From: Aquimarina megaterium XH134
GTDB taxonomy: Bacteria; Bacteroidota; Bacteroidia; Flavobacteriales; Flavobacteriaceae
Assembly (NCBI RefSeq): GCF_000520975.1
Contig: NZ_JACB01000043.1
Location: 1-64,000, forward strand
Direction: 5' to 3'
DNA length: 64,000 nucleotides
Shown: positions 1,948 through 38,254 of the stretch, in pieces
Layout: every line of letters starts with the position of its first letter
Numbering within the stretch: position 1 is the first letter of the stretch
Notes under the pieces: generated by a model
What the model saw: the letters and a program-made list of their open reading frames with translations, nothing else
The model's database searches: none
Told to the model about the DNA's origin: nothing
Program-made: the position numbers and the translations under genes

Positions 1948-2499
1948 GTGAAAATAAATAATAAAATACACTTTTTGATAACAATACTTATGCTGCTGGT
2001 CATAGTTTATTTATGCTTTCAGCAGTATAACGCCAAAAAAAACGTAATCGTAAATGCTCAGACAGTCTTAGAAAACTATCAGGGTTTTAAAGAAGCTCAG
2101 GACTTGTTCGAGATCAAAACCAAGGAGATGCAAGATACGTTCGAAAAGCAAAAAAGTATGTATGAATCCAAATCTAATGAGCTCGAGATTATTTCTGATG
2201 AATTATCCAATCAGGAAAAGATTGTAAAGAAAGGAGAACTAGAGGTTATTAAAGCCAAAACGGTTCAGTTAGGTAAGGCAATCGAACAGAAAGTGATAGC
2301 TCAGGAAGAAGAATTACTACAAGGCGTATATAATAAGATTAATGATTTTGTTAAACGCTATGCAGAAACTCATGATATTGATTTGATAGAAGGAATAACA
2401 AATTCTGGAAATATAATGTATGCATCAGATGCCATAGATATAACACAAGATATTATAGAAGGATTAAATAAAGAATATGTTGAAGGGATTAAAGAATAG
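1948..2499 (+). CDS. OmpH/Skp-family periplasmic chaperone-like protein
   Basis: The 183-residue protein starts at a GTG. It has one N-terminal hydrophobic segment (about residues 8-25; anchor or signal), then VNAQTVLENYQGFKEAQ, a long charged coiled coil, and a C-terminal part with DIDLIEGITNSGNIMYAS. That layout matches OmpH/Skp proteins: a beta-start 'xxVxxxxVLxxYxxxKxA', helical tentacles, and 'YDLVxxxxxxxYAxxxxDIT' near the end. Skp binds unfolded outer-membrane and secreted proteins in the periplasm. The membrane segment without a clear cleavage site suggests it stays anchored. Its place just ahead of the giant RHS genes makes it a plausible dedicated chaperone for them (inference). Confidence 0.75.
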   Translation: MKINNKIHFLITILMLLVIVYLCFQQYNAKKNVIVNAQTVLENYQGFKEAQDLFEIKTKEMQDTFEKQKSMYESKSNELEIISDELSNQEKIVKKGELEVIKAKTVQLGKAIEQKVIAQEEELLQGVYNKINDFVKRYAETHDIDLIEGITNSGNIMYASDAIDITQDIIEGLNKEYVEGIKE

Positions 2500-3097
2500 T
2501 ATATACATTTTTCTGTTGATTGCCATAGGTTGTAGCTCTTCAATTAATAGTGAAAAAGAGCTTTTAAAGTGGTTAGGAGATCCAGGTCATGGATTTATAA
2601 AAAAAACAAAAGCAAATGGCTTTTTGTTATCAATGAAATATTTACCAGCAGAGTACCTAGCACTTAATGAGATGAAAAAAGATAACAAAACTGATATGAA
2701 GGATTTTCAGGGATATGTAGATAAGTTTAAAAATTCTAAAACTTTTTTGTTGACCATAAGTCATGACGAAGAAACAGTAAATGTAAGCAATTATAATGTT
2801 GCTAATCTTAGTGAATACGGGCAGAGAATAAGGGATTTAAGTTTCAATATAAAAGAAGTATTGGTTTTAAAGACAAACTCTGGTAAAAAATATAATCCTG
2901 TTTTAACCACTATGGAAAATGCATATGAAATAGCGAATAAAAAGTCAATTTATATGGTGTTTTCAGACGATCAAAAAGAAATATTGAATTCAGAACAATT
3001 AGACATTGTATTTCAGGATACTTTTTTAGATACCGGAATAAGTCATTTTGTTTTTGAAAACGAAAAAATAAATAATCTACCAAATTTAAACTTTTAA
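2477..3097 (+). CDS. Small lipoprotein of unknown function
   Basis: The 206-residue product has a short basic N-terminus, a hydrophobic stretch and the lipobox IAIGC with Cys19, so it should be a lipid-anchored envelope protein. Its ATG lies inside the OmpH-like gene (23-bp overlap), which implies translational coupling. The mature part is mixed alpha/beta with many Lys and Asp residues and no family I recognise. Its position between the chaperone-like gene and the 1870-aa shell gene suggests a role in assembling or anchoring the shell proteins (inference). I looked for toxin, enzyme or binding motifs and saw none. Confidence 0.8.
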   Translation: MLKGLKNSIYIFLLIAIGCSSSINSEKELLKWLGDPGHGFIKKTKANGFLLSMKYLPAEYLALNEMKKDNKTDMKDFQGYVDKFKNSKTFLLTISHDEETVNVSNYNVANLSEYGQRIRDLSFNIKEVLVLKTNSGKKYNPVLTTMENAYEIANKKSIYMVFSDDQKEILNSEQLDIVFQDTFLDTGISHFVFENEKINNLPNLNF

Positions 3098-3109
3098 TTA
3101 AGAGCACTT

Positions 3110-20900: not shown

Positions 20901-23900
20901 TACTCCAATAATAGAAGATATCCAAACCAGCTGTGATGCAGTTTCTGGATCAGGAACAACGGGAGGTACAGTATCTGGATATACATCAGGAACTGCACCC
21001 TATACATTTACATGGTATTTGGTAACCGAAGAAGAAGTTCTTCCTCCAGACGGAGATCCCGTTATTGAATTGGTAGAAGAATTAAAATACCAAGAAATTG
21101 TTCAGGAAGGTGGTACTTCTAGTTATCCTGGTATTACACCAGGTAATTATAAGGTTGTCGTAACAGATGCTAATGGTTGTACTGCAGAAACAGTAGTTAC
21201 AGCGGTAACACAACCTCCGGTAAGACGTAATTATAATATATGTTTAAGTTGGGTATCTCCGACTCAAAAAGAAAGAAATGATACAGAACCAGATACTACT
21301 CGTACGGTTAAACCTATTGGTCCATCTACATTTAATCAAGCGATCGCATCCAAAGTAGAACTTTGTGTTGTTGAAAATATAGATAAGTTAGAGGCTAATG
21401 TAAATGAGGTTCTTTATAATACAGGAGGACTAGATGATGAGGTGACGTTAAAATATACTCAGGGAACAAGTGATACTTATCATTTCACTCTATACTATTA
21501 TGATCGTGCAGGTAACCTGGTACGTACAGTACCACCAGAAGGAGTTCGTACGGTTAGCGATCGTAGTGCAACTGCACATACATATGTTACGGGATATGAC
21601 TATAATAGTATTTCACAATTAGCTAGTCAAAATACACCAGATGGAGGTACTTCACAATTCGTATATAATGATATTGGTCAATTATGGTATTCTCAAAACG
21701 AGCGCCAGCAACGAGAAGGAGTATTCTCCTATATAGTATATGATGAACTGGGGAGAGTGCGTGAAGGTGGAGAAGCCAAATTAAATGGAAAAATATTCCC
21801 TGCCGATTTCTTGATTAATAATCAGGCAAATCCACAAGTGGCAATCGATTTACCAATGATTGATAAAACTGAATATATTCAGACCACTTATAATGATAGA
21901 GTAGAAGAAATTTCTTATCGAGATCAAAAACAACGTTTTTTACGTAATAACGTAAGTTTTATTAATAATAAAGATAAAAACGGTAAGCTTACTAAAACAT
22001 ATTACAGCTATGATCCACATGGTAATGTAGAGTGGTGCGTACAGGAACTCCCAGGGATCGGAAGAACAACAGTTGCCTATACATATGACTTAGTATCGGG
22101 TAATGTAAACGAAGTTCATTTCAATAGAGGGCGAGTAGATGAATATCGTCATAAATATACCTATGATGAAGATAACAGAATCGTATCTGTAAAAACATCT
22201 AAAGATGGTTATGTATGGGATGAAGATGCCCGATATGATTATTATCTACATGGCCCATTAGCAAGAACCGAACTAGGTGAAGATAAGGTACAGGGATTAG
22301 ATTTTACCTATACCATTCATGGATGGTTAAAAGGTATTAATACTCCTGATCTTGCACAGAATGCTTATAATCCAGATGCAAATAATAAACGTGGTGATGC
22401 CGCAACAAAACATGCCAAAGATGAATTTGGTATGGTATTAGGCTATTATCGTGGAGATTTTACTCGTGATGGAGTATTAAATTCTGGACTTACGGCGGCT
22501 AATCCGTTTAATCTGGAAAATGCAGTAAACGGCGTACAACAGAACTTGTATAACGGTAATATTAGCACCTGGACTTCTCAGGTCGCAGAAGAAGCGAAAG
22601 AGAAAAATAGGGCGAGTTACCTTACCGGAAATAACTACCGATATGACCAGTTAAACCGAATCAAATCATCAACTACACAATTGTATAGTGATACCAATCA
22701 AACCTATGGTGCTATAGGGGGCAGTGCCAATGCCTTTAAAACATCTTATGAGTATGATAAAAATGGTAACCTACAACGATTAAAACGGCATAAAGATGAC
22801 GGACAGCTAATAGATGATCTAACGTATCACTATAACCTTGAAGATCCAAACTTATCTAATCGTTTAACATATGTAGATGATGCTGCAGGACAAGTAAGTA
22901 CAGTAATCAATGATTTACCTGATCAAAATGTAGGAAACTATGAATACGATGAAACAGGGCAGTTAATTCGCGATAATAGCGAAGGACTACGTTATGTATG
23001 GACAGCCGCTGGTAAAGTATCAGAAATTATCCCGGATAATACGGGTAATCCTGATACGCAAAAAGTACACATGTCATTTACTTATGATGGTATGGGTATG
23101 CGTGCCATGAAGCAAGTAAACCGTATGCCATATAATGTAACAGGAGAAGGTCCGCAAATTCATAATCCGGCAGCAATAGAAACAACCTATTACACTTGTG
23201 ATGCTTCTGGTAATGTAATGGGAATCTATAAACGCGAGGATGTTAAGGTAAATCCAAATGATGCAACCGATAATACCTATACAGCAACGTTTAGCATCTC
23301 AGAGAGACCTATCTATGGTAGTGATCGTGTTGGACAGGATGTCTTTAGCGAAGTAATCTATACGCGTACCTATGGATTTGATACTATAGAAAACTATGAA
23401 GAGGTAGCAGTACAGTTTATGAGTAATATCACAAACGCACTAGACAATGTATTCTTAGTACAAAATGATAGTAAAGAGTTAACAGATACAAACGGTGCTG
23501 TAGTGCAGGTTCCTGGAACCAAGATGGCGAAAGCTAAAGCAGATCGAACGTTTAATGCATTACAGTATGAAGCTTTACAACAAGAAAATGAAGCTATTGT
23601 ACCTATTGTAACAGATAATAATGTTTTCTTAATCGAGAATACACAGGGTGAAGTAATAAGTTACGGTGCAGTAGCAACTAATTACTTTAGTACTGATCCC
23701 GATCGTTCTGTATTATTGATCTACGATGCATCAGGTAATCTGGTATCAGGATTAGAAACTATTAATGTTGATACAGCTACATCAATTGATCCGCAGGCAA
23801 AAACAGTAGTAGTAAAACACCCATCTAATCCTAGTGAGTATTTGATATTCTATAGAGATACAGCTTCAGGGTTACATTGCGCAACCTTACGTAATAGCGG

Positions 23901-25776: not shown

Positions 25777-26230
25777 TAATATTTTAGATTTAGATAAACT
25801 TTTTAGAGAAGCAAAAGGAAAACCTGTTGGGATTAACGGAAAATTTTTAGTACGAATAGATCGTTTTAATCTACCGGTAAAAAAAATACCTTTAAATTTT
25901 TGTTTCATTGAGACAAATAGTGAGTGGAAACAAGGGTTTATTTTGAAAACCAAAGGAACTTTTAAATTAAACTCAAAGGATACTATTAGAGATGCCATTG
26001 TGTTATGGGAAGATACAGCTCCAAAGGATTTTGTTGTGAATGTCAACTCTAAAGATGGGAAACTTTTAATTTATAATGTATGGGATTTTGGGAATGGAAT
26101 TACTCAAGCATGGCATAATGGAGCTGCAATTGAAATAAAGCAGATAACTAATAATAAAAGAGTTTATTATTGCAATGATGGTCATCCTAATTTAGATCTT
26201 AATAATTTGGTGTTCAGTATGACATGGTAA
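25757..26230 (+). CDS. Probable immunity protein for the HNH-type RHS toxin
   Basis: I place the start at the ATG 25757, which has AGGAA about 8 nt ahead (25766 is an alternative). The longer frame from 25676 would overlap the toxin heavily. The protein (about 157 residues) is cytoplasmic with no signal. It has the C-terminal pattern LLIYNVWDFGNGITQAWHNG, then YYCNDGHPNLDL and a final Trp. I know this WHNGAA/CNDGxPxxDxxDLVF pattern from immunity-like genes next to HNH-type RHS/CDI toxin tips in other bacteria. The position directly after and overlapping the toxin end is the classic arrangement for a cognate inhibitor that protects the producer. The pairing is inferred. Confidence 0.75.
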   Translation: METMEDNNILDLDKLFREAKGKPVGINGKFLVRIDRFNLPVKKIPLNFCFIETNSEWKQGFILKTKGTFKLNSKDTIRDAIVLWEDTAPKDFVVNVNSKDGKLLIYNVWDFGNGITQAWHNGAAIEIKQITNNKRVYYCNDGHPNLDLNNLVFSMTW

Positions 26231-26275: not shown

Positions 26276-26319
26276 ATAAAGACAAAAGCTACCTATTTCT
26301 AGGTAGCTTTTGTCTTTAT
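26276..26319 (+). terminator. Strong hairpin terminator after the immunity gene
   Basis: A perfect 18-bp stem has its inner arms at AAAGACAAAAGCTACC (26278-26293) and GGTAGCTTTTGTCTTT (26302-26317) and an 8-nt loop, TATTTCTA. It ends in a T-rich run on the coding strand and a complementary A-rich run on the other strand, so it may act in both directions. It separates the toxin array from the next operon. Confidence 0.85.
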
Positions 26320-26908: not shown

Positions 26909-27685
26909 ATGCAAAAAATAATATATATAAGTATCATATTCACCTGCCTGTTGAGTTGTAAAACTTCGCAGGAACTGTTTAATAAGAAAAATATCAGTAC
27001 TACCAAGTATAAAGAAAGTTTTCATATTACAGAGGATGAGCCAAAACCAAAATTAGGAGTAAAATACTATTGGTTTAAATCCAGAAAAGTACAGGCTACA
27101 CAAAGTGATTATGCAGGAGAATTATTGGATGGGGTATATACCAAGTATTATTACTCTAATGAGTTGGCAGAGAAAGGCAATTTTAATAAAGGAAAAAAGA
27201 TTGGTGTCTGGAAATCCTGGTATAAAAACGGCCAATTAGCAACTACAGAAAACTGGAACAAAGGAGTACTAAATGGCAAATGCGTATTCTATGATAGTAT
27301 TGGTAATATAATATCAAAAGGTAAATATACTAGTGGTAAACGATCTGGGAAATGGATTTTCGTGCAAAAAGGTGACACTATAGATTATAGTAAAAAAGTA
27401 CGTAAAGAAAAAGATACACTAAAGCCAGGGTTCTTTGGTAGACTATTTAAACAGAAAGCAAAAGATTCAGTAGCTCCTCAGGAGAAAAAATCAGGTTTCT
27501 TTAAAAGGCTTTTTTCTAAAAAAGATAAAAATAAAACAACTTCTAAAAAGACAAAGAATAATAACCCAAAGGTAAAAGGGAATACTAAAAAGGGAGTTAA
27601 AAAAGCAAAACAAAAAAAGAAAACTAACGATAAACCAAATTTCTTTCAACGATTATTTGGTAAAAAAGAAAAGGATAATACGTGA
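26909..27685 (+). CDS. YwqK/MORN-type repeat lipoprotein with basic FFxRLF tail
   Basis: I prefer the ATG at 26909, preceded directly by AAAGGA, over the TTG at 26888. The product (258 aa) has a lipobox LLSC with Cys17, so it is an envelope lipoprotein. Residues about 70-160 carry three YwqK/MORN_2-like repeats (KGKKIGVWKSWYKNGQLA, GVLNGKCVFYDSIGN, SGKRSGKWIF). The rest is a very Lys-rich tail with three spaced copies of FFxRLF followed by Lys (residues about 175, 197 and 245). The next gene's GTG overlaps its stop, so it opens the secretion operon. Its role could be docking to a partner or to nucleic acid or membranes through the basic motif (inference). Confidence 0.75.
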   Translation: MQKIIYISIIFTCLLSCKTSQELFNKKNISTTKYKESFHITEDEPKPKLGVKYYWFKSRKVQATQSDYAGELLDGVYTKYYYSNELAEKGNFNKGKKIGVWKSWYKNGQLATTENWNKGVLNGKCVFYDSIGNIISKGKYTSGKRSGKWIFVQKGDTIDYSKKVRKEKDTLKPGFFGRLFKQKAKDSVAPQEKKSGFFKRLFSKKDKNKTTSKKTKNNNPKVKGNTKKGVKKAKQKKKTNDKPNFFQRLFGKKEKDNT

Positions 27686-28905
27686 TAAAAGCTGGTTCTA
27701 TAGCGTATGCGATACTAATTTGTATTGTAGTAGGGATATTTTGTTATTCACTGTTATTGATGAGTGGATATTCTAAAATACATCAGGGAATGCTTGATGC
27801 CCATGCCGAACTAGTATCTAACAATGAATCAGCACAAGAGTATTTTCTTGCAAAAATAGAAGATATCGAAGAGAAGAGAATTACCATAGATGTTTTTGAT
27901 AATGGTATGGTTTCCTCTGGTAGTATAAAGCCATGGGGATTTTATAAGGTATTGTTAACCACTTCTGTTTTTAAGAAAGACACTATAAAAAGAGCAGCTT
28001 TGATAGGGCAGTGGCAAAAAGAAGATGCAATGGCACTATATCTTTCAGATGCATCTAAACCTTTATTTATGGTAGAAAAAGCCAAAATAACAGGTAATGT
28101 GTTTTTACCAAAATCAGGTATAAAAGCAGGGTATATCACTTCTAATGCATACCGAGATACAAAATTTTTGATAGGTACAAAACGTAATTCAAAAACGAGT
28201 TTACCAAAAATCGACCATGTAGATTTTGCATATGATATCGATAATGTACGCCAAATTAGGCTAAATGAAATAAAAGACGATGTTCTTTTATATAACAGTT
28301 TTAGTAAGCAAACACTGGTTATAGAAAGCGATACTATAATCATAAATAATAAAAAGCTTTCGGGAAATATTGTTATAAAATCTAAAGACTCTATCTATAT
28401 CAAAAAAAATAATGTATTAGAAGATATTATTATAGATGCTCCGAAAGTAGCTTTTGAATCTGGTTTTACTGGTAATGTACAGGTGTTAGCAGAGAAAGTA
28501 GTGGGACTTGAAGAAAATGTAGTTTTAAAATACCCATCGGGTATTTTGATGAATAGAGGTAATGTCGATAAAAGAGAAGTTACTATAGGAAAGAAAAGTA
28601 AGATTTTGGGAGGAGTGGTGATAAATGATATAAATAGAGGACTAGATAAGATAGTTACCGTAGAAGAAGATGCTGAAGTAATAGGTGATATCTACTGTAG
28701 TGGCAAGTTACAACTTAAAGGAAATGTAATAGGTACAGTATACACAAGTAACTTTTACCTTAGGACAGAAGCCTCTGCATATGATAATTATATTTTAAAC
28801 GGAACAATTGATAGGAAAAGTCTTCCTGATGAATTTGTAAGGATACCGCTCTTTAAAAATAAAAGTGAATACTTTAAACCCTATGCAATTATTAAACAAA
28901 TATAG
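27682..28905 (+). CDS. Large pseudopilin-like protein with beta-helix domain, possible GspK counterpart
   Basis: The 407-residue protein starts at a GTG overlapping the previous TGA. Its N-terminus KAGSIAYAILICIVVGIFCY looks like a processed prepilin: a short leader, Ala-Gly, then a hydrophobic helix. It lacks the Glu at +5, as the tip pseudopilin GspK does. After about residue 210 there is a repetitive Ile/Val pattern (NVIGTVYTS, GNIVIKSKDSIYIKK, AEVIGDIYCSGKLQLKGN) typical of a bactofilin-like beta-helix. I infer a minor tip pseudopilin with an enlarged beta-helix head. The alternative is a simple membrane-anchored polymer-forming protein. Its end overlaps the next gene, another prepilin, supporting a shared pathway. 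Confidence 0.7.
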   Translation: MIKAGSIAYAILICIVVGIFCYSLLLMSGYSKIHQGMLDAHAELVSNNESAQEYFLAKIEDIEEKRITIDVFDNGMVSSGSIKPWGFYKVLLTTSVFKKDTIKRAALIGQWQKEDAMALYLSDASKPLFMVEKAKITGNVFLPKSGIKAGYITSNAYRDTKFLIGTKRNSKTSLPKIDHVDFAYDIDNVRQIRLNEIKDDVLLYNSFSKQTLVIESDTIIINNKKLSGNIVIKSKDSIYIKKNNVLEDIIIDAPKVAFESGFTGNVQVLAEKVVGLEENVVLKYPSGILMNRGNVDKREVTIGKKSKILGGVVINDINRGLDKIVTVEEDAEVIGDIYCSGKLQLKGNVIGTVYTSNFYLRTEASAYDNYILNGTIDRKSLPDEFVRIPLFKNKSEYFKPYAIIKQI

Positions 28906-29224
28906 TGTTAAAGCGGGGTCTGTTATAGAATCGGTAATTGCCATGACTATCATTGCAATTTGCTTGTCTATGGCACTAATAATTTATAGTAGAGTGTTGG
29001 GCTCTGATCATAGTATTGCTCATTATCAGGCTCGGCAAAAAGTAAAAGAATTGTTTTGGGAAACAAAAAGTGAAAAACAATTTATAGATGAAGATTATGA
29101 TTTTGAATCTTTTACCGTAGTAAAAAAAGTAGAGAAATTAGAAAATAACGCAGGATATAAAGTTGTATTTACGATAAAGGTACAATCAAAAAAAGAAACA
29201 TATCAATACATTGTTAGAGAATAA
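28883..29224 (+). CDS. Pseudopilin-like protein, GspI-like
   Basis: The N-terminus reads KAGSVIESVIAMTIIAICLS, which is the prepilin pattern: Gly before the cleavage site, hydrophobic +1 to +4, and Glu at +5. I use the ATG at 28883, though a GTG at 28865 is also possible. Both overlap the previous stop. The mature protein is about 100 residues with a small charged beta domain, in the size range of GspI/GspH. It should be inserted in the inner membrane, cut by the prepilin peptidase, and joined to a short pseudopilus. Assignment to I rather than H rests on the ESVIA motif and order, so it is tentative. Confidence 0.78.
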   Translation: MQLLNKYSVKAGSVIESVIAMTIIAICLSMALIIYSRVLGSDHSIAHYQARQKVKELFWETKSEKQFIDEDYDFESFTVVKKVEKLENNAGYKVVFTIKVQSKKETYQYIVRE

Positions 29225-29705
29225 AAAACATATACGATTACAAGCATTTACAATGCTAGAACTCGTTATTGGCATGGTGATATCATCATTGGTGATTACG
29301 ATGGTATATGTTATTTATGATAATTTATCTAGACAAGTAGTGGTTTATGCAGATCAACAAGATGATTTAATGACATATAACCAGTTTCAAAACCTTTTTT
29401 CAAAAGATGTTCAACTTAGTACATCTATAGATATAGATGATGATAGACATATTGTATTAGAGAGTACTAATAAAGAGATACACTATTTTTTCAAAACAGA
29501 AAAAATCATTAGAAAAGCAGAAGCTGTAGATACTTTTAATATAAAAGTTCTGGAGGTTCAGTTTGACCAAAACGAAAAAATTGAGGAAAAATATCAACTT
29601 ATAAAACTTAAGATTGAGATACTTGGAGCAAGTTTTGATTTTTTTGAATCAAAAGAAATTTCTCTTGCATCGAGAATGAATAATTATTTGCTGGATGAGT
29701 ATTAA
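29211..29705 (+). CDS. Pseudopilin-like protein, GspJ-like
   Basis: The 164-residue product begins at TTG and overlaps the previous stop. Its leader KKHIRLQA is followed by FTMLELVIGMVISSLVITMV. The +5 Glu and the hydrophobic helix fit a type IV prepilin, but the residue at -1 is Ala instead of Gly. The size and the C-terminal beta-rich head fit GspJ, which caps the pseudopilus with I and K. Its start near the GspI-like stop implies translational coupling. The family is certain as a pseudopilin, but the letter is an inference. Confidence 0.78.
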   Translation: MLENKKHIRLQAFTMLELVIGMVISSLVITMVYVIYDNLSRQVVVYADQQDDLMTYNQFQNLFSKDVQLSTSIDIDDDRHIVLESTNKEIHYFFKTEKIIRKAEAVDTFNIKVLEVQFDQNEKIEEKYQLIKLKIEILGASFDFFESKEISLASRMNNYLLDEY

Positions 29706-30828
29706 TATTTCAACATATAAAACGAAAAATGTCACTAAGGCAAAGAAGAAAAACGATAGTTTTTTCTCTAAAGAAGTGAGTTTTGGTAATCGTTTTTCTG
29801 ATAAAGATAAAATGGATTTCTATAAAGAACTTTCTGTTTTATTAAATTCTGGGGTAGATTTTAGAAAGGCACTTGAAATATTAAAAGACCAGCAAAAAAA
29901 GGAGAAACACAAGAATCTGATACAGGCTATAACAAAAGAAGTGGTGCAAGGTAAAGCCTTATTCGAGGCGTTACGAGACTCTGGGAAGTTTTCTCCGTAT
30001 GAATACTTTAGTGTTAAAATTGGGGAAGAGACCAGAAAATTAGACGAAGTATTACTAGAATTATTTCAGTACTTCGATAGAAAAGTAAAAATGAGGAGGC
30101 AGTTGTTATCGGTTTTTACATATCCTTCGTTTGTATTACTGTTAACTTTTGGAGTACTTTATTTTATGATGAAGTACGTCGTACCTATGTTCGCTACTGT
30201 ATTTAAACAGTTTGGAAAAGATTTACCAAACTTAACTAAAAAAATTATTTATGTTTCAGAGCATTTTTCAACCATAAGTATAGTTTTTGGTATTGTTTTG
30301 ATCTCCATAATAGCTTTTCACTTTTACTTTAAAAACAGGACTTTTTATAGAAAAGCAATATCTAATGTAATTATACGAATCCCATTTTTTGGTAAACTGG
30401 TAAGAAAAATATACATCACACGTTTTTGTCAATCGCTAAGCTTATTATTATCTGCAAAAACTCCATTAGTAACTTCTTTGGATTTAGTGCAGCGTATGAT
30501 ATCCTTTTATCCGTTAGAATCAAGTTTAGATATGATCAAAAAAGAAGTAACAAAAGGAACTCTTTTTTCAAAAGCGTTAGCCAAACATTCTATATACGAT
30601 TTTAAATTAGTTTCGCTTGTTAGCGTAGCCGAACAAGTAAATAAATTAGATGATATGTTTGAACGATTGGCTAAACAATATGATGAAGAAGTGCAGCACC
30701 AAACTAAGATGATTGGTGTTATTATGGAACCATTAATAATTGTAATCATAGGTTTGGTTGTGGGTACTGTATTAATTGCAATGTATTCACCAATGTTTGA
30801 TTTAAGTAAAATTATTCAACCTTCTTAA
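29695..30828 (+). CDS. gspF: Type II secretion/type IV pilus inner-membrane platform protein GspF
   Basis: The 377-residue protein has two repeats of the T2SSF domain (FYKELSVLLNSGVDFRKALEIL and FCQSLSLLLSAKTPLVTSLDLV) and three membrane segments (about 140-165, 195-220, 340-365). That is the layout of GspF/PilC. It forms the central inner-membrane platform around which the ATPase drives pseudopilus growth. The N-terminal cytoplasmic part is short, about 40 residues before the first repeat. It overlaps the GspJ-like gene by 11 bp and precedes the GspG-like gene by 9 bp. Confidence 0.93.
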   Translation: MSINISTYKTKNVTKAKKKNDSFFSKEVSFGNRFSDKDKMDFYKELSVLLNSGVDFRKALEILKDQQKKEKHKNLIQAITKEVVQGKALFEALRDSGKFSPYEYFSVKIGEETRKLDEVLLELFQYFDRKVKMRRQLLSVFTYPSFVLLLTFGVLYFMMKYVVPMFATVFKQFGKDLPNLTKKIIYVSEHFSTISIVFGIVLISIIAFHFYFKNRTFYRKAISNVIIRIPFFGKLVRKIYITRFCQSLSLLLSAKTPLVTSLDLVQRMISFYPLESSLDMIKKEVTKGTLFSKALAKHSIYDFKLVSLVSVAEQVNKLDDMFERLAKQYDEEVQHQTKMIGVIMEPLIIVIIGLVVGTVLIAMYSPMFDLSKIIQPS

Positions 30829-30837
30829 AAAAGGAAA

Positions 30838-31260
30838 ATGAAGATAAAAAAGAACACCAGTAAAAAGGTTTATGTAAAGGCATATTCGATGTCAGAATTA
30901 GTAATTGTATTATGTATTATTGGGATTTTAATACTATTGGTATTACCAAACCAAACGGCTGTAGTATCACAAGCAAAAGCTATTGAAGCCCAGAGTATGC
31001 TTAACCATCTGTATGGATTAGAGAAGAGCTATTTTTATCGAAACTCTAAGTATACAACCGATTTTGAAGCCTTAGGCTTTGAACCAGCGCTATCTATTAG
31101 TGAAGGAGGACAGGCTGTGTATAGAATTGAGATCACAGAGGCGTCTACTAATTCTTTTAAAGCAAGAGCGGTTTCTCTATCCGATTTTGATGGCGATGGT
31201 ACTTTTAATACCTGGGAGATTGATCATAATAAGTTATTAAAAGAAACGGTAAAGGACTAA
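30838..31260 (+). CDS. gspG: Major pseudopilin GspG-like
   Basis: The 140-residue protein has the leader KVYVKA and then YSMSELVIVLCIIGILILLV, a standard prepilin helix with Glu at +5. The residue before the cut is Ala. The rest fits GspG: a helix with AIEAQSMLNHLYGLEKSYFY and a C-terminal loop DFDGDGTFNTWEID. That acidic loop looks like the calcium-binding site of major pseudopilins. It ends exactly at the start of the prepilin peptidase gene (1-bp overlap). GspG forms the body of the pseudopilus that pushes substrates through the secretin. Confidence 0.85.
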   Translation: MKIKKNTSKKVYVKAYSMSELVIVLCIIGILILLVLPNQTAVVSQAKAIEAQSMLNHLYGLEKSYFYRNSKYTTDFEALGFEPALSISEGGQAVYRIEITEASTNSFKARAVSLSDFDGDGTFNTWEIDHNKLLKETVKD

Positions 31261-31745
31261 TGACATACGTATTAGTATCCATTTTATTCATCTCTTTGGG
31301 GATAATGTTATATCAAGATGTCAGGTATAGACATATACATATTGGGCTACCTATTTTGGTGTTTGTGGTGAGTATGTATATGAATAAAGATATCATAGTT
31401 CTTTTTGATGGTTTGAAATCATTGGCGTTTATTGGAATTAATTTTCTTTCAATAGTAACATATTTTTCCATTAAAAAATCAAAATTTCAAAATCCATTTC
31501 AACAATATATTGGTATAGGAGATTTGGTGTTTTTAATCGCCGTAATTCCTCTCTTTTCCTTTAGAAATTATATGCTGTTCTTTATTTCTGGGATGATATT
31601 GTCTTTAGTATTGTATGCGATATTTCAGAATAAAAGCGAACAGAAAACAATACCATTAGCAGGATATTTATCACTATATATCATTGGTTTGATGATTCCT
31701 AATCTATTTTTATCAACTAACATTTTTTACGACTTTATCATTTGA
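31260..31745 (+). CDS. Short prepilin peptidase (A24 family, GxGD)
   Basis: The 161-residue membrane protein has the catalytic Asp20 in YQDVRYRHI and Asp88 in YIGIGDLVFL, the two aspartates of type IV prepilin peptidases. It lacks the N-terminal Cys-containing methylase part of GspO/PilD, so it is of the short A24 (TadV/CpaA/EppA-like) form. It has about six hydrophobic segments. It should cut the leaders of the nearby prepilins in the inner membrane. It overlaps both neighbours (1 and 4 bp), so it is part of the operon. Confidence 0.88.
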   Translation: MTYVLVSILFISLGIMLYQDVRYRHIHIGLPILVFVVSMYMNKDIIVLFDGLKSLAFIGINFLSIVTYFSIKKSKFQNPFQQYIGIGDLVFLIAVIPLFSFRNYMLFFISGMILSLVLYAIFQNKSEQKTIPLAGYLSLYIIGLMIPNLFLSTNIFYDFII

Positions 31746-33157
31746 GCACTGATACCAACATACAAATATCTGTAGAACTAAAACAGCTTATTAATGCTGA
31801 TTTAGCACATCATTATAGTATTATTCCTAAGAACAATACCGAAGATGTAATGGAACTCTATATTGACGCAGAAAAAGTAAATTCTCAGGTCAAGGAAGAG
31901 TTAGAATTGTATTTGGGAAAACCATTAAAGTTTGATGAGATTTCGTCAGAGAGACTAAATAAAGCATTGTTTGTCTATTACAGAAAGAATAATAGAGATC
32001 AGGAAGCAACACAAAGTATATCTACTGTAGAAAGTAGTTTTTTGGATACTTTGATTTTTGAAGCTAAATCTATTGGTAGTAGTGATATTCATTTCGAAGT
32101 GTATGAAGAAGAAGCAAGAGCAAGACTGCGTATTGATGGTGTTTTAGTTGAAAAATATAAAATTCCTAAAGAGAGTTATTTAGAATTAGTAAATAAGATA
32201 AAAATAGAATCTAATCTGGATATCACAGAAAAAAGATTACCACAAGACGGAAGGATCGATTATAAAGATTTTGATATTAGAGTTTCTATATTACCCACCT
32301 TACATGGTGAAAAAGTGGTAATGCGTCTGTTAGGAAAAGATGCTTCTAATATTAGATTAGAAGACTTGGGGTTGGAGTTAGAAGAAAAAGAAAAATATCT
32401 TGAAGCCGTAAAAAAGAATAATGGTATTGTATTAATTAGCGGACCTACCGGATCTGGTAAAACAACAACGCTATATGCTACGCTTAAACTCCTTAATGAT
32501 GTAAAAAGAAATATAGTAACTGTAGAAGATCCGATTGAATATACGTTAAAAGGAATTAATCAAGTACAACTTAAAGAAGACATCGGACTTACTTTTTCTT
32601 CTGCATTACGGTCATTTTTACGACAAGATCCAGACATAATCATGCTTGGAGAAATCAGGGATGCCGAGACAGCCAAAATGGCTATCAGGGCTTCATTAAC
32701 AGGGCATTTAGTGTTGTCTACAATACATACTAATTCTGCACTGGGAACCATATCCAGATTAGTTGATATGGGAGTTCCTGCATTTTATATTGCAGAGACC
32801 TTAAACCTATCTGTTGCACAGCGATTGGTTAGAAAATTATGTCCACATTGTAAAAAAGAGACTCCTTTTAATGAAGAAGAACTTCCTAGAAATTATAAAC
32901 TTCCTAGGGCCTTATCCACACATCATATGCCAGTAGGATGCACAGAATGTTACTATACCGGGTATAAGGGTAGAAGAGCAATTTATGAAATTGTATCGAT
33001 CACAGATGATGTCGTGAATGCTATTAAAAATAATAGCCATAATCTAGAACAAAATATAAGTTATAAATACCAAAGCCTTGCGGATAAAGCTTTTAATTTA
33101 TTAGAAGAAGGGGAAACTTCTCTCGAAGAAATTTATTCGCTGCTAATCAAAGCTTAA
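31742..33157 (+). CDS. gspE: Type II secretion/pilus assembly ATPase GspE
   Basis: The 471-residue protein starts at TTG overlapping the previous stop. Walker A is GPTGSGKT (residues 234-241). Walker B is near 296-307 (DPDIIMLGEIRD), followed by the His box with LSTIHTNSA. Two CxxC pairs (CPHCKK and CTECYY, about 367 and 400) form the zinc-binding site of GspE/PilB, and AIYEI follows. The N-terminal N2-type domain contains SSDIHFEVYEEEARARLRID. It is a cytoplasmic hexameric ATPase that powers pseudopilus extension by contacting GspL and GspF. It is slightly shorter than E. coli GspE, as the N1 domain is small. Confidence 0.95.
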   Translation: MSTDTNIQISVELKQLINADLAHHYSIIPKNNTEDVMELYIDAEKVNSQVKEELELYLGKPLKFDEISSERLNKALFVYYRKNNRDQEATQSISTVESSFLDTLIFEAKSIGSSDIHFEVYEEEARARLRIDGVLVEKYKIPKESYLELVNKIKIESNLDITEKRLPQDGRIDYKDFDIRVSILPTLHGEKVVMRLLGKDASNIRLEDLGLELEEKEKYLEAVKKNNGIVLISGPTGSGKTTTLYATLKLLNDVKRNIVTVEDPIEYTLKGINQVQLKEDIGLTFSSALRSFLRQDPDIIMLGEIRDAETAKMAIRASLTGHLVLSTIHTNSALGTISRLVDMGVPAFYIAETLNLSVAQRLVRKLCPHCKKETPFNEEELPRNYKLPRALSTHHMPVGCTECYYTGYKGRRAIYEIVSITDDVVNAIKNNSHNLEQNISYKYQSLADKAFNLLEEGETSLEEIYSLLIKA

Positions 33158-33159
33158 TT

Positions 33160-35055
33160 ATGAAGAAATTTTTATATTATATAGTATTAGTTTGTATAAT
33201 TCCACTTTCGTATGGACAGCAGGACATGCAAAAGATCGAAGAACAAATTAATGCATATGCAGAGGAAACTCCCGAACTTAATGAAACGATACAGATTGAT
33301 GTCTCGGGACTAACACTATATGATTTTCTAACCTCTGTTGCAATAGAACACAAGCTAAATATAAGTGCAGATCAGGATCTTAACCAGATTGTTTCCAGTA
33401 GTTTTTTTAATGTTCCTGTTAAAGATGTGTTTCTTTTTGTGATCAAGAAATATAATCTAAGTATAGAGTTTATAAACAAAATCATTGTTTTTAAGAAAAC
33501 TGTAAAACCAAAAGAACTTCCGAAACCAAAAGTGCTTAAAGAAATCGATGTTACTTATAATAGTCAAAATGATTTCTTGGTGATTAAACTTAAAAACGAT
33601 TCTTTGCCTCGCGTAGCTAAAAAGATTACCGATGTATCTGGCAAAAATGTAATCTTAGGACCTAATGTAAAAAATGAAAAAGTTTCTGCTTATATCTTAA
33701 ATAGACCATTTGATCAGGTAATGGAGATGATGGCTAAATCTAATAAATTAATAGTGACCAAAGATGATAATGGGTTTTACTATGTAGAAAAAGATCAAGC
33801 GCCAGCAGTAGGTACAGCTACTAGATCGTCGAGGAAAGGTAAGAAAACCAGGGGCCCAGAATCATCTGCAGAAATTACGGTTCTTCCAAGTGGGTTTTTG
33901 AGTGTTCAGGCATTTGATGCCGATATTACTTCGTTGATATTAGAAGCAGCAGAAAAACTCAATGTAAACTATTTCATGTATGATAAACCTGAAGGAGCTA
34001 CAACAACATTGGTAGTAAACGAAATTACTTTTGATGAGCTTTTGGATCATGTTTTTATGGGTAAAAATAGTACGTATAAAAAAACAGATGATTTTTATCT
34101 TATCGGAGATCAAAATGGAGAAGGACTTAGGAGTACAGAACTTATACAACTAGAAAATAGAACAATAGAAACTGTTTTAGAAACATTACCTAAGGACTTG
34201 ATAGAAAATGTAGAACTTAAGGAGTTTATAGAACTTAATGGATTCGTGGTTTCTGGTTCAAGACCAAGAATATTAGAGTTAAAAGAATATATAAAACAAA
34301 TTGATAAAGTAGTACCTATGATCCTTATAGAGGTGCTTATAGTACAATATCAAAAAGGGTACGACATTCAAACCGGGATTAAAGCAGGAATTGATAAAAA
34401 AGAGAGAGTTACTTCTGGGGCTTTATTTCCGCAATCTGAAGTTACTATAAATTCATCTTCTGTAAATAAGTTGATCGATGCTTTTAATGGGTTTGGTATT
34501 TTTAACCTGGGTAAAGTTGCAAAAGACTTCTATCTTAGTTTAAAAGCTCTAGAAAATAATTCTATAATCCGATTGCAATCAACTCCCAAGATTTCTACAC
34601 TAAGTGGCCATGAAGCAAAAATTTCTATCGGAGAAACTAATTATTACTTCGAACAAAATAATAGATTGATTAATAATGGAGTAAGTAGTGATATTTTACA
34701 GTCAGGTCAATGGAAAGCTACAGATGCAAATTTAAGTGTTAATATAAAACCTTTTGTCTCTAAAGATGAACAAATAACACTAACTATTGTTGTAGAAAAG
34801 AGTGCCTTTTTAGGAAGAGCAGGAGAGAACGCTCCACCAGGAAAATCAACCCAGCAGTTTGAGTCCTTGGTTCGAGTACGAAATGGTGAAATGATCCTTC
34901 TGGGAGGATTGGATGAATTAGAAAAAGAAAACTCTGGGACCGGTACACCTGTTTTATCTAGAATACCAATAATAAAGTGGTTTTTTAGTAGTAAAACCAA
35001 GAAAAAGAAGAAGTCAAAGTTACACGTGTTTATTAAACCGACTGTTGTTTACTAA
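33160..35055 (+). CDS. gspD: Secretin GspD/PilQ-like
   Basis: This 631-residue protein has a signal peptide (cut near SYGQQ). N-domain and STN-like modules cover about 45-110 and 145-215. From about 400 the secretin barrel follows (VPMILIEVLIVQYQKGYDIQ, RLQSTPKISTLSGHEAKISI, RVRNGEMILLGGLDELEKEN, VLSRIPIIKWFFSS). The last motif, including the IP-x-[LI] loop, marks the GspD/PilQ family. It makes the outer-membrane channel for the machine. No pilotin-type signal is obvious, but a lipoprotein follows in the operon. The gene starts 2 bp after GspE, and its stop shares one base with the next ATG. Confidence 0.93.
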   Translation: MKKFLYYIVLVCIIPLSYGQQDMQKIEEQINAYAEETPELNETIQIDVSGLTLYDFLTSVAIEHKLNISADQDLNQIVSSSFFNVPVKDVFLFVIKKYNLSIEFINKIIVFKKTVKPKELPKPKVLKEIDVTYNSQNDFLVIKLKNDSLPRVAKKITDVSGKNVILGPNVKNEKVSAYILNRPFDQVMEMMAKSNKLIVTKDDNGFYYVEKDQAPAVGTATRSSRKGKKTRGPESSAEITVLPSGFLSVQAFDADITSLILEAAEKLNVNYFMYDKPEGATTTLVVNEITFDELLDHVFMGKNSTYKKTDDFYLIGDQNGEGLRSTELIQLENRTIETVLETLPKDLIENVELKEFIELNGFVVSGSRPRILELKEYIKQIDKVVPMILIEVLIVQYQKGYDIQTGIKAGIDKKERVTSGALFPQSEVTINSSSVNKLIDAFNGFGIFNLGKVAKDFYLSLKALENNSIIRLQSTPKISTLSGHEAKISIGETNYYFEQNNRLINNGVSSDILQSGQWKATDANLSVNIKPFVSKDEQITLTIVVEKSAFLGRAGENAPPGKSTQQFESLVRVRNGEMILLGGLDELEKENSGTGTPVLSRIPIIKWFFSSKTKKKKKSKLHVFIKPTVVY

Positions 35056-36242
35056 TGTTAGAACAGATAAAAAATAATATTTTAAAGCCTTTTCAGGAAA
35101 AACAATACGCTATTGTAGGTGTAATATTGGGAGATACTCCAATATACAATGTGCTTATAGTAGATAAGAAATCTGATGCTTTGTCGGTAGAAACTTCTTT
35201 TTCTACTGAGGATTTTAACGTTGTTAAAGATAAAGTGAATACATCAGTTCCTTTACTTCTTAATTTTTATGGAAAAGGGATTATAAATAAACAAGTTTCT
35301 GCAAAAGGAAACTATTTAAAAGAAGTATTGTTTAATGCTTCTATTGATGATTTTTATATTTATGAACTACATCAAAATCAACAAAATTTTATTTCAATTG
35401 TAAGAAAAGACGTCTTAGAAAAATTCTTTGCACTGTTTTTAGAAAATAAATATTTGGTTGTAGATTATAGTATTGGCCCTTTTGTAGGGGTGCTATTTAA
35501 AGGGCTATCTAATACTTCATCAATTATTTCTGCCGATTATGAATTGAGTTTTGAAAATGATTACCTAATAGAAACCCAAAAACTGGATACTATTACCAAA
35601 GAATATATCTTGGGAGAGGAGAAGATTAACAATATCCAGGTTCCTTTATTTTCTACACTACTTCATTATTTATATCCATCAGATGATTTTAGCTACGATG
35701 CAGAATTTTTGAAAGAAAATAAAAAAGAAAATGTACTTAAAAAGGCATTTAATACCGTAGCTACAGTATTGGGAATTTTTTTCCTGTCTGCATTATTGAT
35801 TAGCTATTTGTTATTGAATTACTATAATGACAAGTATGTAAGTTATGAATCTCAATTATATAATCTTAATGATACTTATAATCAAGTAAAAAAATTAGAA
35901 AACGAAAAAGAGAACAAAACAAAAATTCTTCAGGAATCGGGTATTTTAAATCAGAACTTTCTTTCTTTTTATATGTACCGTATAGTAAATTCTATTCCTG
36001 ATAATGTAGGACTTAATAGCTTGAAGGTAAACCCTACGCAGAAAAAGATCAAGAATTTTGAAAAGATAATATTTGAAACAAATACCATTATTATTAATGG
36101 TAATTCTAGTTCGAGTATGCCAATTAATTCTTGGGTTAAAGAATTGAAGAAGGAAAACTGGATTTCCAAAATAGAGATTTTGGATTTTAGTAAGAGTAGA
36201 AATAAAAAAAGTGAATTCACTTTAAAAATCATTGTAAAATAG
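35055..36242 (+). CDS. GspL/PilN-like inner-membrane assembly protein
   Basis: The 395-residue product has a cytoplasmic N-terminal domain (about 1-225) with no clear actin-type ATP motifs. A single membrane span follows (about 234-258, LGIFFLSALLISYLL), then a coiled coil and a PilN-like alpha/beta domain (about 280-395, IVNSIPDNVGLNSLKV, ... WVKELKKENWISKIEIL). That is the layout of GspL or of a PilM-PilN fusion. GspL recruits the ATPase GspE to the inner membrane. It shares single-base junctions with the genes on both sides. Confidence 0.8.
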   Translation: MLEQIKNNILKPFQEKQYAIVGVILGDTPIYNVLIVDKKSDALSVETSFSTEDFNVVKDKVNTSVPLLLNFYGKGIINKQVSAKGNYLKEVLFNASIDDFYIYELHQNQQNFISIVRKDVLEKFFALFLENKYLVVDYSIGPFVGVLFKGLSNTSSIISADYELSFENDYLIETQKLDTITKEYILGEEKINNIQVPLFSTLLHYLYPSDDFSYDAEFLKENKKENVLKKAFNTVATVLGIFFLSALLISYLLLNYYNDKYVSYESQLYNLNDTYNQVKKLENEKENKTKILQESGILNQNFLSFYMYRIVNSIPDNVGLNSLKVNPTQKKIKNFEKIIFETNTIIINGNSSSSMPINSWVKELKKENWISKIEILDFSKSRNKKSEFTLKIIVK

Positions 36243-36766
36243 TGTTTGCAAATTTAACATATAAACAAAAATTAATTGGGCTTATAGCGATTGGAATATT
36301 GCTATTCATGGCAGCGAATAAGAGGTCTTTTAAAATCACTCGACATGCCTATGATCAGGTTCGAGAATTAGAAGATAAGTTAGAATATGTAAACTCATCA
36401 ACAACCGATGTTACTCAAACACAGACAGAATTAAAGTTTTATGATAAAATAATAGGAAAACAGGGAGTAGAACCTGAAGAAATACAACAACAAATATTGG
36501 ATTTTGCATCTACTTATGATAATGTGTATGTTTTTAACTTAGATGAAATCCATATAGCAGAAAGTAATGGTTTTAATGTAATTAGTAACCAATTGACACT
36601 AGAAGGAGATTTTAATGGACTATTAGAAATAGTGTATGCATTTGAGAAAGAGTTTAAGTTTTCAAATATTGTTAGTATTTCATTTGTAAAAGAAAAAGAA
36701 TTCCAAACACGAAAAAATAAATTAAGAGTAAAGATAATATTTCAGAATTATGAAAAAAATAGTTAA
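36242..36766 (+). CDS. GspM/PilO-like protein
   Basis: The 174-residue protein starts at GTG on the previous stop's last base. It has one short N-terminal membrane segment (about 10-25), a coiled coil (YDQVRELEDKLEYVNSS) and an alpha/beta C-terminal domain (GDFNGLLEIVYAFEKEFKFS, a PilO/GspM signature-like pattern; about 90-174). GspM and PilO partner with GspL/PilN in the inner membrane. The order L then M supports the assignment. It overlaps the next lipoprotein gene by 17 bp. Confidence 0.78.
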   Translation: MFANLTYKQKLIGLIAIGILLFMAANKRSFKITRHAYDQVRELEDKLEYVNSSTTDVTQTQTELKFYDKIIGKQGVEPEEIQQQILDFASTYDNVYVFNLDEIHIAESNGFNVISNQLTLEGDFNGLLEIVYAFEKEFKFSNIVSISFVKEKEFQTRKNKLRVKIIFQNYEKNS

Positions 36767-37709
36767 TATAGGTATAGTTTTTAGCAGTTTGTTTCTGTTG
36801 ATAGCGTGCGATGATGTCCTCGAAGAAGATATTACAGATGATTTGGTAACAACGGTAGCGCCAAAAGATAAAAGTAGTCTCGATGGTAATTCGGTTCAGT
36901 TTAGATGGGACGAATTAGCAGATGCAGACGATTATAGAATACAGGTAGTAGAAGAGGCTACACAAAGAAGTGTGTTGGATTCATTAGTTAAGGGGAATAA
37001 CTTTACATATGGGCTTAATCCTGGTGAATATAGCTGGAGGATACGAGGAGAAAATTTTGCGTATACCACAGCCTATAGTTTTCCTATTTCTTTTACTCTT
37101 TCTGTATCAGACGACTTAACAAACCAAACTGTATTTTTAACGTCACCATCAGAGAATTTTTATACGAATAAAGATGCTTTAATATTAACCTGGGATAGAA
37201 TTCAGTCAGCGACTTCATATACTGTAGTTGTTGATAAGACCATTCAAGGAAATACAGCTACCGAAATCCAGACTCCTGATTTAACTAATAATAATTTTAC
37301 ACTTAATTCTACGGTCTTGAGTGAAGATGCGATATATACCTGGAAAGTAAAAGCTGTAAATGATAATAGTGAAACCAAATTCTCAACGAGAAAGATTTTT
37401 CTAGATACCCAGGCACCTAATCAACCCACATTGGCATCACCTAATAACGATGCAAAAGGATCATCGCCTATTACGTTTACCTGGAATATACCTAGTGATA
37501 CCGGAGAAATACAATCTACATTGTCTAGCGTTATAGAAGTAGCAACAGATAGTGGTTTTGCAACCATAATTGAGACTGTCCCAACTAGTTCGAACTCTCA
37601 GGAAATAACATTTTCTAATTTAGGAGATTACTATTGGAGAGTGAGAATCTTAGATCAAGCCGGGAATAAAAGTATTTATAGCGAAGTTAGAAAAATAACG
37701 GTTGAGTAA
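36750..37709 (+). CDS. Lipoprotein with Fn3-like repeats inside the secretion operon
   Basis: Its lipobox is LLIAC with Cys20. The mature part is mainly three Fn3-like beta-sandwich repeats of about 90 residues, each with an aromatic strand pattern (VQFRWDELADADDYRIQV, LILTWDRIQSATSYTVVV, ITFTWNIPSDTG). It sits between the GspM-like and GspC-like genes. Lipoproteins with Fn3 folds are common in Bacteroidota, but one within this operon suggests a structural or pilotin-like role at the outer membrane (inference). Confidence 0.75.
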   Translation: MKKIVNIGIVFSSLFLLIACDDVLEEDITDDLVTTVAPKDKSSLDGNSVQFRWDELADADDYRIQVVEEATQRSVLDSLVKGNNFTYGLNPGEYSWRIRGENFAYTTAYSFPISFTLSVSDDLTNQTVFLTSPSENFYTNKDALILTWDRIQSATSYTVVVDKTIQGNTATEIQTPDLTNNNFTLNSTVLSEDAIYTWKVKAVNDNSETKFSTRKIFLDTQAPNQPTLASPNNDAKGSSPITFTWNIPSDTGEIQSTLSSVIEVATDSGFATIIETVPTSSNSQEITFSNLGDYYWRVRILDQAGNKSIYSEVRKITVE

Positions 37710-37741
37710 ATAAAACCTAATGAATTGTAATTTTTAGGCTA

Positions 37742-38254
37742 GTGAATAAGAAGATTTTAAATAGCGTTCTGATTTTTTTTATGCTTGTCATCTGGGCAAT
37801 TGTTTTTAATAAAATTTTTAATTTTTTTGGAAACAATGTAGAAGAGAGCAACGTATCGGTTAATCCAATTACTATTGTGGATCCCAGAATGAATTTTTCG
37901 AAAGATACTTTTGATCTTAGAAAAGTTGAAAGAGATCCATTCTTAGGAAAATATGTTGTTTCTAGAGGACAAAAGCGTAAAACAAATACGAAACTAGTAT
38001 CGAATAACAAGTCTAAGAAAACAAATGTAACTCCTAAAAATAGTGTTAAGAAACCATGGCCTAAATTAAGTTATCATGGTTATGTAAAAGGATCTAAAAG
38101 TACTTCAGAACTAATCTTAATTAGAATGAATAATAAATTTTATAAGATTAGAGAAGGGGATATGCTAGAAGATATTTCTGTAAAAAGGATATTTAGAGAT
38201 TCTATAATTATAAAAAGAAGTAGAGAGAGTAAAACTGTACTAAAAAGTAAATAA
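37742..38254 (+). CDS. GspC/PilP-like protein
   Basis: The 170-residue product starts at GTG. An N-terminal membrane helix (about 7-27) is followed by a linker with RDPFLGKYVV, typical of GspC/PilP, then a basic Lys-rich stretch (about 80-108) and a small beta domain (LSYHGYVKGSKSTSELILI, KFYKIREGDMLEDISVKRIF), similar to the HR domain of GspC. GspC/PilP links the inner-membrane complex to the secretin. It is the last gene of the operon. Confidence 0.8.
   Translation: MNKKILNSVLIFFMLVIWAIVFNKIFNFFGNNVEESNVSVNPITIVDPRMNFSKDTFDLRKVERDPFLGKYVVSRGQKRKTNTKLVSNNKSKKTNVTPKNSVKKPWPKLSYHGYVKGSKSTSELILIRMNNKFYKIREGDMLEDISVKRIFRDSIIIKRSRESKTVLKSK

What the first reader, a model, noticed from the sequence alone, without database searches (positions are those of the whole stretch)
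26909..38254. Complete but divergent T2SS/T4P-like operon in a Bacteroidota genome
Seen: four pseudopilin-like genes (K/I/J/G-like), F, a prepilin peptidase, E, D, L-, M- and C-like genes in one compact operon, with two lipoproteins. Known: Bacteroidota depend mainly on T9SS, and complete T2SS-like sets are rarely discussed in flavobacteria. Inference: a second outer-membrane exporter, or a pilus-like machine, is present. Its position right after the RHS array raises the question of whether it exports those giants.
Basis: partly seen in the sequence, partly recalled or inferred. Interest (0 to 1): 0.7.

Follow-up and report, generated by a model that had tools for sequence, protein, structure and literature searches.

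The report
Likely exporter of giant RHS proteins
A 13-gene secretion machine in an Aquimarina genome is intact, belongs to a little-understood Bacteroidota branch of the type II secretion/type IV pilus family, and across the group sits with giant RHS toxin-like genes so often that it is probably their way out of the cell.

Summary
In detail: 26909-38254 encodes 13 tightly packed, same-strand genes (MORN lipoprotein, K, I, J, F, G, O, E, D, L, M, FN3 lipoprotein, C). The machine type is not new. The same gene order was described in Cytophaga and Flavobacterium as a putative T2SS, and Denise 2019 placed it outside true T2SS. The own genome shows one such ATPase over the cut-off and one secretin; no PilT.

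Of 120 genomes of the family, one per genus, 23 have the ATPase and all 23 have RHS-core genes, against 23 of the other 97. RHS component A occurs in 19 of the 23 and 0 of the 97. RHS cores lie within 40 kb of the ATPase in 15 of 23 (about 2 expected). In a Kordia genome the operon runs straight into Skp, a lipoprotein and component A; in one genome of another class an RHS giant lies inside the gene cluster.

Best reading: a Sec-plus-Skp, T2SS-like exporter whose chief clients are RHS giants. Export itself is inferred. One species-level notice of the linkage exists (F. psychrophilum). Side finding: its prepilins mostly carry alanine, not glycine, at -1.

The parts
26909..27685 (+). MORN-repeat lipoprotein, first gene of the operon (ORF also open from TTG 26888)
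   Evidence: lipobox-like start LLSC; MORN_2 4e-4, below cut-off; heads the block in relatives
27682..28905 (+). K-like large minor pilin: pilin helix plus predicted beta-solenoid
   Evidence: IKA|GSIAY start; Bactofilin 7e-4, below cut-off; low-confidence model with helix 4-56, sheet 77-111 and strands 189-361; no significant PDB match
28865..29224 (+). I-like minor pilin
   Evidence: VKA|GSVIE start
29211..29705 (+). J-like minor pilin
   Evidence: LQA|FTMLE start; N_methyl 9e-5
29695..30828 (+). F, inner-membrane platform protein
   Evidence: T2SSF 4.5e-45
30838..31260 (+). G, major pilin
   Evidence: VKA|YSMSE start; PilA_Myxo 3e-10 below cut-off
31260..31745 (+). O, short prepilin peptidase (161 aa), no methylase domain found
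   Evidence: Peptidase_A24 5.5e-4, below cut-off, and no other relevant family; GIGD motif in the sequence (motif recalled)
31742..33157 (+). E, assembly ATPase
   Evidence: T2SSE 1e-124; only match over the T2SSE cut-off in the genome
33160..35055 (+). D, secretin
   Evidence: Secretin 8e-36; only secretin match in the genome
35055..36242 (+). L, actin-like cytoplasmic domain + membrane helix + ferredoxin-like periplasmic domain in one chain
   Evidence: AlphaFold model pLDDT 80; Foldseek best hits GspL cytoplasmic domain 1e-7; PulL/XcpY periplasmic domains TMt 0.75-0.80, E 0.02
36242..36766 (+). M/PilO-like protein
   Evidence: position, size, conservation; no informative Pfam match
36750..37709 (+). 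FN3 lipoprotein
   Evidence: fn3 1.3e-7, lipobox-like LIAC; conserved in the block
37742..38254 (+). C/PilP-like membrane-anchored protein
   Evidence: position, N-terminal hydrophobic stretch, conservation; no Pfam match
1948..2499 (+). Skp/OmpH-like chaperone of the RHS array
   Evidence: OmpH 3.8e-18; homologs in 20 of 118 loci searched around the machine
2477..3097 (+). small lipoprotein of the cassette
   Evidence: lipobox-like start; homologs in 8 loci, next to Skp and component A in L137 and L146-L149
3110..8722 (+). RHS component A (1870 aa)
   Evidence: DUF6531 7e-4, below cut-off; found only in genomes with the machine, 19 of 23 against 0 of 97
9526..14544 (+). RHS component B (1672 aa)
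   Evidence: signal-peptide-like start; DUF6443 1.3e-4, below cut-off
14986..25776 (+). RHS component C (3596 aa) with RHS core and C-terminal colicin/pyocin-type DNase domain
   Evidence: Rhs_assc_core 1.3e-9, Col-Pyo_DNase 5e-4, below cut-off, colicin E7 DNase chain 6e-7
25676..26230 (+). probable immunity protein of component C
   Evidence: position after the toxin end (inference); among the loci searched a homolog only in L111

Best explanation
The operon builds a T2SS-like pseudopilus machine of the Bacteroidota type whose chief clients are the giant RHS proteins. Proposed path: (1) the giants cross the inner membrane by Sec (signal-peptide-like starts: shown; use: inferred); (2) the linked Skp-like protein escorts them in the periplasm, where A and C fold into a closed RHS shell around the C-terminal toxin (inferred from what is known of RHS proteins); (3) E drives F to assemble the G filament with I, J and the solenoid-bearing K at its tip, which pushes the folded cargo through secretin D (inferred from T2SS); (4) L, M and C link ATPase, platform and secretin, and the two lipoproteins serve as outer-membrane or cargo-docking parts (inferred). 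Without PilT the filament is not expected to retract by motor.
For: Co-occurrence in 120 genomes, one per genus: 23 of 23 genomes with E have RHS cores, 23 of 97 without (Fisher 3e-12). Component A in 19 of 23, 0 of 97 (1.5e-18), within 30 kb of E in 14 of the 19. RHS core within 40 kb of E in 15 of 23, 2.2 expected. RHS/A-like ORFs in 49 of 80 named loci. Physical interleaving: G148, M-L-D-E-O-G / giants / fn3-C-K-I-J-F; G294 of another class, RHS giant between K and G; G268 of another class, RHS genes then K-J-J-F-G-E-D-C. Kordia L088: C, Skp, lipoprotein, A on one strand with gaps of 8, 11 and 277 bp; Skp follows gene C within 400 bp on the same strand in 8 of 80 named loci. Same Skp-lipoprotein-A cassette in window, L146-L149 and L137. 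23 of 26 giants with intact start look signal-peptide-like. NCBIfam finds no T9SS tail on the three window giants but one on a window adhesin. No T6SS sheath match of either family in the own genome. No PilT, one secretin. L has GspL architecture.
Against: No experiment. In Aquimarina RHS is found in 20 of 21 genomes, two of them (G006, G012) without a secretin match, and only 3 of 10 congeners' window-type operons have an RHS giant in the fetched upstream stretches; two more have an RHS core 25-35 kb downstream, but in the complete genome G019 the nearest listed core is about 82 kb away. In the window the RHS array and the operon are separate units, 678 bp apart with a hairpin between. 23 of 97 genomes have RHS and no machine; 4 of 9 of these that I tested have T6SSiii, and so do 6 of the 23 with the machine. 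Five of the 19 component-A matches are weak (E 5e-6 to 2e-4), and one search scored at most three candidates a genome. T2S mutants of Cytophaga have a cellulose phenotype and hardly changed extracellular proteins (PMC5553014). My signal-peptide rule is loose: 164 of 345 background ORFs pass. Genomes are related and genome size was not controlled, so the Fisher values overstate.
Confidence: 0.62

Rival explanations
1. A general T2SS-like exporter of enzymes or surface adhesins, with RHS as one client among many or none.
For: Cytophaga t2s mutants lose cellulose-bound outer-membrane proteins and grow poorly on cellulose (PMC5553014, passages read).
Against: Does not explain why all 23 genomes with the machine have RHS and why component A was found only in them, nor the interleaving.
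Confidence: 0.2
2. Neighbours by genome habit: the machine and RHS genes share variable islands without working together.
For: RHS genes are abundant in Aquimarina and linkage is loose within the genus.
Against: Same-strand, short gaps between gene C, Skp, lipoprotein and A in Kordia; the same cassette in another class; A not found without the machine in 120 genomes.
Confidence: 0.12
3. A T4P-like filament for adhesion or DNA uptake; the solenoid pilin K is a tip receptor like Thermus ComZ.
For: Denise 2019 places the Bacteroidetes system with T4aP. K joins a pilin helix to a predicted solenoid, as ComZ does (PMC6561018). PMC7965970 lists competence gene homologs in F. johnsoniae, with a 'PilT' hit whose accession lies next to the platform and secretin and is probably E itself (that reading is mine).
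Against: No PilT in the own genome; L is a GspL-type fusion; F. johnsoniae, which has the genes, was not competent under the conditions used (start of the abstract of PMC7965970); the ComZ match is not significant (E 4.6).
Confidence: 0.06

Closest known systems
Putative T2SS of Cytophaga hutchinsonii CHU_3191-3202 and F. johnsoniae Fjoh_0614-0622 (PMC5553014)
   Same: same order of minor pilins-F-G-O-E-D and three divergent inner-membrane candidates with one gene between them
   Different: clients there unknown, studied for cellulose; the paper labels the three last candidates C, L, M where I read L, M, C; in the passages read the lipoproteins and the solenoid of K are not assigned; 'Rhs' and 'YD repeat' do not occur in its text
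'So-called T2SS of Bacteroidetes' in Denise 2019 (PMC6668835)
   Same: same system type; proposed as a possible novel secretion system derived from T4aP
   Different: no cargo named in the passages read
F. psychrophilum CC-ST10 35-kb cluster FPSM_02418-02439 (PMC5808330)
   Same: T2S genes in two divergent blocks with ABC-toxin-like proteins and an OmpH/Skp protein in the cluster; authors suggest dedicated translocation
   Different: one species, no survey of linkage in the passages read; window operon is one block beside the array
Proteobacterial T2SS (E. coli gsp)
   Same: D, E, F, G, I, J, K, L, M, C, O roles; L fusion
   Different: E, F and D score below the T2SS equivalog cut-offs; no H seen; Ala instead of Gly at -1; short peptidase
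TANFOR polymorphic toxins (PMC7073777)
   Same: Bacteroidetes giant toxins with signal peptides
   Different: those were proposed as T9SS clients; the window's RHS giants show no T9SS tail and sit by the T2SS-like machine

Membership tests
Canonical T2SS (Gsp) | components pass T2SS equivalog models | tested here: not met
   GspE 470 of 630 bits needed, GspF 239 of 424, GspD 138 of 351; MacSyFinder itself not available
Canonical T2SS (Gsp) | one-chain L with actin-like and periplasmic domains | tested here: met
Canonical T2SS (Gsp) | no retraction ATPase | tested here: met
   one T2SSE match over the cut-off in a 99.99% complete genome; a second at 19.6 bits is below it
Canonical T2SS (Gsp) | ATPase branches with GspE | tested here: inconclusive
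   apart from PilB-type ATPases of the phylum, relation to two GspE rows unresolved
Canonical T2SS (Gsp) | exports folded periplasmic proteins | not testable with these tools
   needs mutants
Type IVa pilus | PilT present and PilB/PilQ models pass | tested here: not met
   no PilT; PilB 473 of 676 bits, PilQ 133 of 284
Bacteroidota T2SS-like system | gene order minor pilins-F-G-O-E-D-L-M-x-C | tested here: met
   against the order given in PMC5553014
RHS polymorphic toxin (component C of the array) | RHS core followed by a toxin domain | tested here: met
   core at 3267-3349, DNase at 3483-3571

The most novel reading that the evidence does not exclude
The Bacteroidota T2SS-like machine, reaching into other classes of the GTDB phylum, is a dedicated exporter of RHS giants: a secretion system in its own right, defined by the cassette Skp-lipoprotein-A-C, in which a two-part RHS shell is filled in the periplasm and pushed out whole by a pseudopilus with a solenoid tip.
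Probability: 0.4. Interest if true: 0.87.

Novelty: new variant of a known kind. Interest (0 to 1): 0.7.

Why it matters
How RHS giants leave Bacteroidota cells without T6SS is, as far as my searches show, open, and the clients of the Bacteroidota T2SS-like machine are unknown. The linkage ties the two questions together and makes both testable in one deletion strain. If true, a T2SS-type machine is an interbacterial weapon launcher across a major phylum.

Tried and rejected
Canonical T2SS or T4aP filing: rejected on equivalog cut-offs and lack of PilT. T6SS as the RHS route in this genome: rejected, no VipB and no Bacteroidota TssC (that model's number was recalled); PF05943 alone misses T6SSiii, as the comparison shows. 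T9SS as the route: no T9SS tail found on the window giants, not tested for relatives. DNA or competence function: weak (see rivals). The sigma-70 type promoter scan was at chance level; the TTTG/TAnnTTTG motif (recalled) had 5 matches in the window, chance level, none upstream of the operon. PDB search with component A found nothing. The K fold search gave no significant match.

The E threshold that separates the other-class ATPases of RHS-positive genomes (301-345 bits) from ordinary PilB was chosen after seeing the data. Dropped rows: G102 (16.6 bits) and a second weak G061 match; all weaker ATPase matches. Match tables are cut; one search gave the full RHS positions for the 23 genomes.

Full report
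WHAT IS THERE. The stretch 26909-38254 holds 13 genes on one strand with gaps of at most 32 bp; 9 of 12 junctions overlap. Family scans name F, E and D with confidence and L, J, O and G more weakly; K, I, M and C rest on place, N-terminal motif and conservation. E, D and F miss the T2SS and T4P equivalog cut-offs. The genome (6.2 Mb, 161 contigs, 99.99% complete) has one secretin and one ATPase of this kind over the cut-off, so no PilT and no second such system was found.

RELATIVES. A scan of named genomes with E kept the best 80 of 177 loci, closest in Aquimarina. All 13 genes in the order MORN-K-I-J-F-G-O-E-D-L-M-FN3-C form one block in 48 of 80; G-O-E-D-L-M-C in order in 66; in 12 more all 13 are present but the set is longer or rearranged. 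So the two lipoproteins and the large K belong to the system. The order matches that given for Cytophaga and F. johnsoniae in PMC5553014 (passages read), whose labels for the last three genes differ from mine. PMC6668835 (passages read) finds that the Bacteroidetes system always clusters with T4aP and away from T2SS, and raises a possible novel secretion system. The machine is therefore not new.

ARCHITECTURE. L is modelled (pLDDT 80) as an actin-like domain, a long membrane/coiled helix and a ferredoxin-like domain; its best PDB matches are the GspL cytoplasmic domain and, more weakly for the far end, PulL/XcpY. That is T2SS-like, since T4P splits this into PilM and PilN (recalled). K is modelled with low confidence (pLDDT 72, the other four models below 59) as pilin helix, sheet and solenoid, without a significant PDB match. 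It resembles ComZ of Thermus in layout only (PMC6561018, passages read).

ALANINE AT -1. All four pilins of the window have Ala where the class III signal normally has Gly (recalled). In the named loci the script counted Ala in 63 of 65 K (one more of 66 not assigned), 58 of 66 I, 60 of 67 J and 73 of 76 G (one I row, L047, is miscalled and is also Ala by eye). Cleavage is inferred: rows with Ala-Gly (24 K, 10 I) could also be cut after Gly; rows with Ala before N, S, H, Y or F could not. The five E. coli K-12 pseudopilins have Gly, and so do the G pilins of six systems of other classes (L132, L134, L136, L166, L167, L170); in nine G pilins of a second family type (L139, L141-L143, L145-L149) eight are Ala and L139 is Ser. 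One paper search with four terms found nothing on this.

RHS LINKAGE. In 120 genomes of the family, one per genus, E at 473 bits or more is found in 23, RHS cores in 46. All 23 genomes with E are among the 46; so 23 of 97 without E have RHS (Fisher 3e-12). Component A of the window array is found in 19 of 120, all among the 23, 14 strongly and 5 weakly (1.5e-18). In 15 of 23 an RHS core lies within 40 kb of E on the same contig, against 2.2 expected under random placing; six of the other eight have E within 13 kb of a contig start. RHS or A-like ORFs lie in 49 of 80 named loci. Six RHS ORFs sent to NCBIfam (three orphan-type from L050, L072 and L085; three giants from L136, L139 and L140) all carry the RHS core.

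INTERLEAVING. In G148 (complete) the giants lie between M-L-D-E-O-G and fn3-C-K-I-J-F. In G294, of another class, an RHS giant of 2257 aa lies between K and G on the same strand. In G268, of another class, RHS genes precede K-J-J-F-G-E-D-C. In an uncultured Kordia genome gene C is followed on the same strand by an OmpH/Skp protein, a lipoprotein and component A, with gaps of 8, 11 and 277 bp; Skp follows C within 400 bp on the same strand in 8 of 80 named loci. The same Skp-lipoprotein-A cassette is in the window (1948-8722) and in L137, L146-L149. An annotated Flavobacterium record (NZ_CP091287) has an RHS-core gene between halves of the machine.

OTHER CLASSES. In 198 phylum-level genomes, 82 of them RHS-positive, the Bacteroidia-type E (497 bits or more) is in 7, all RHS-positive and all in the window's family; of 12 other genomes of that family 3 have RHS. 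Twelve genomes of other classes have E homologs of 301-345 bits, all 12 RHS-positive; G246 and G272 (300 and 296 bits) are RHS-negative and their ATPases fall with PilB. Linkage within 40 kb is seen in 6 of the 12 (G268, G172, G294, G167, G230, G160; the table is cut). In the tree the window-type, second-type and other-class ATPases from RHS-positive genomes form one group (82/95), apart from two PilB groups of the phylum; the place of GspE is unresolved and two reference rows have long branches.

ROUTE. 23 of 26 RHS/A giants with an intact start pass a crude signal-peptide rule, against 164 of 345 background ORFs; 3 of 30 orphan-type RHS ORFs pass, as expected of silent toxin cassettes (inference). 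NCBIfam shows no T9SS tail on the three window giants, while a window adhesin at 55809-59420 has one. VipB is absent from 32 of 32 genomes tested; the Bacteroidota TssC is in 6 of the 23 and in 4 of 9 RHS-positive genomes without E (9 of 23 tested), beside RHS in G074 and G098. So some RHS of genomes without the machine go with T6SSiii.

AGAINST. Within Aquimarina RHS is nearly universal (20 of 21) and often far from the operon: 3 of 10 congeners have a giant in the fetched upstream stretch, two more (G005, G013) a core 25-35 kb downstream. G022 and G024, of the same order, have RHS and no secretin match. Cytophaga mutants point to cellulose, with hardly changed extracellular proteins (PMC5553014). 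Genome size and relatedness were not controlled.

PRIOR ART ON THE LINK. PMC5808330 (passages read) describes one such cluster in F. psychrophilum, with ABC-toxin-like proteins and Skp, and suggests dedicated translocation. Zhang 2012 (PMC3482391, passages read) files signal-peptide RHS toxins under 'T2SS/Sec-dependent' with no signature neighbour genes. Searches (listings) showed no phylum-wide report; subscription papers are not held.

VERDICT. A known but poorly understood machine; the new part is the strong, repeated coupling to RHS giants, which makes dedicated export the best reading.

Noticed in passing
pilins of L032-L111 and window 27682-31260: Ala replaces Gly at the inferred -1 position of prepilin cleavage sites in most of the Bacteroidia systems seen, while six systems of other classes keep Gly in the G pilin.
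   Followed up: partly
window 55809-59420: 1203-aa adhesin with tandem-95-type repeats and a T9SS type A tail.
   Followed up: no
G010 (L121, L130, L131): One Aquimarina genome carries three T2SS-like loci; two (L121, L130) lie beside giants of 3475 and 3255 aa.
   Followed up: partly
L154 (NZ_CP091287): A record called plasmid, 11,289 bases, holds machine genes, an RHS-core gene and little else; it may be a stray chromosomal contig.
   Followed up: no
window 125-1909: LRR and Ig-domain ORF open to the window (and contig) start; relatives are parts of giants in L121, L150 and L151.
   Followed up: no
window 26276-26319: Long hairpin between the RHS array and the operon, called terminator-like on the minus strand.
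   Followed up: no
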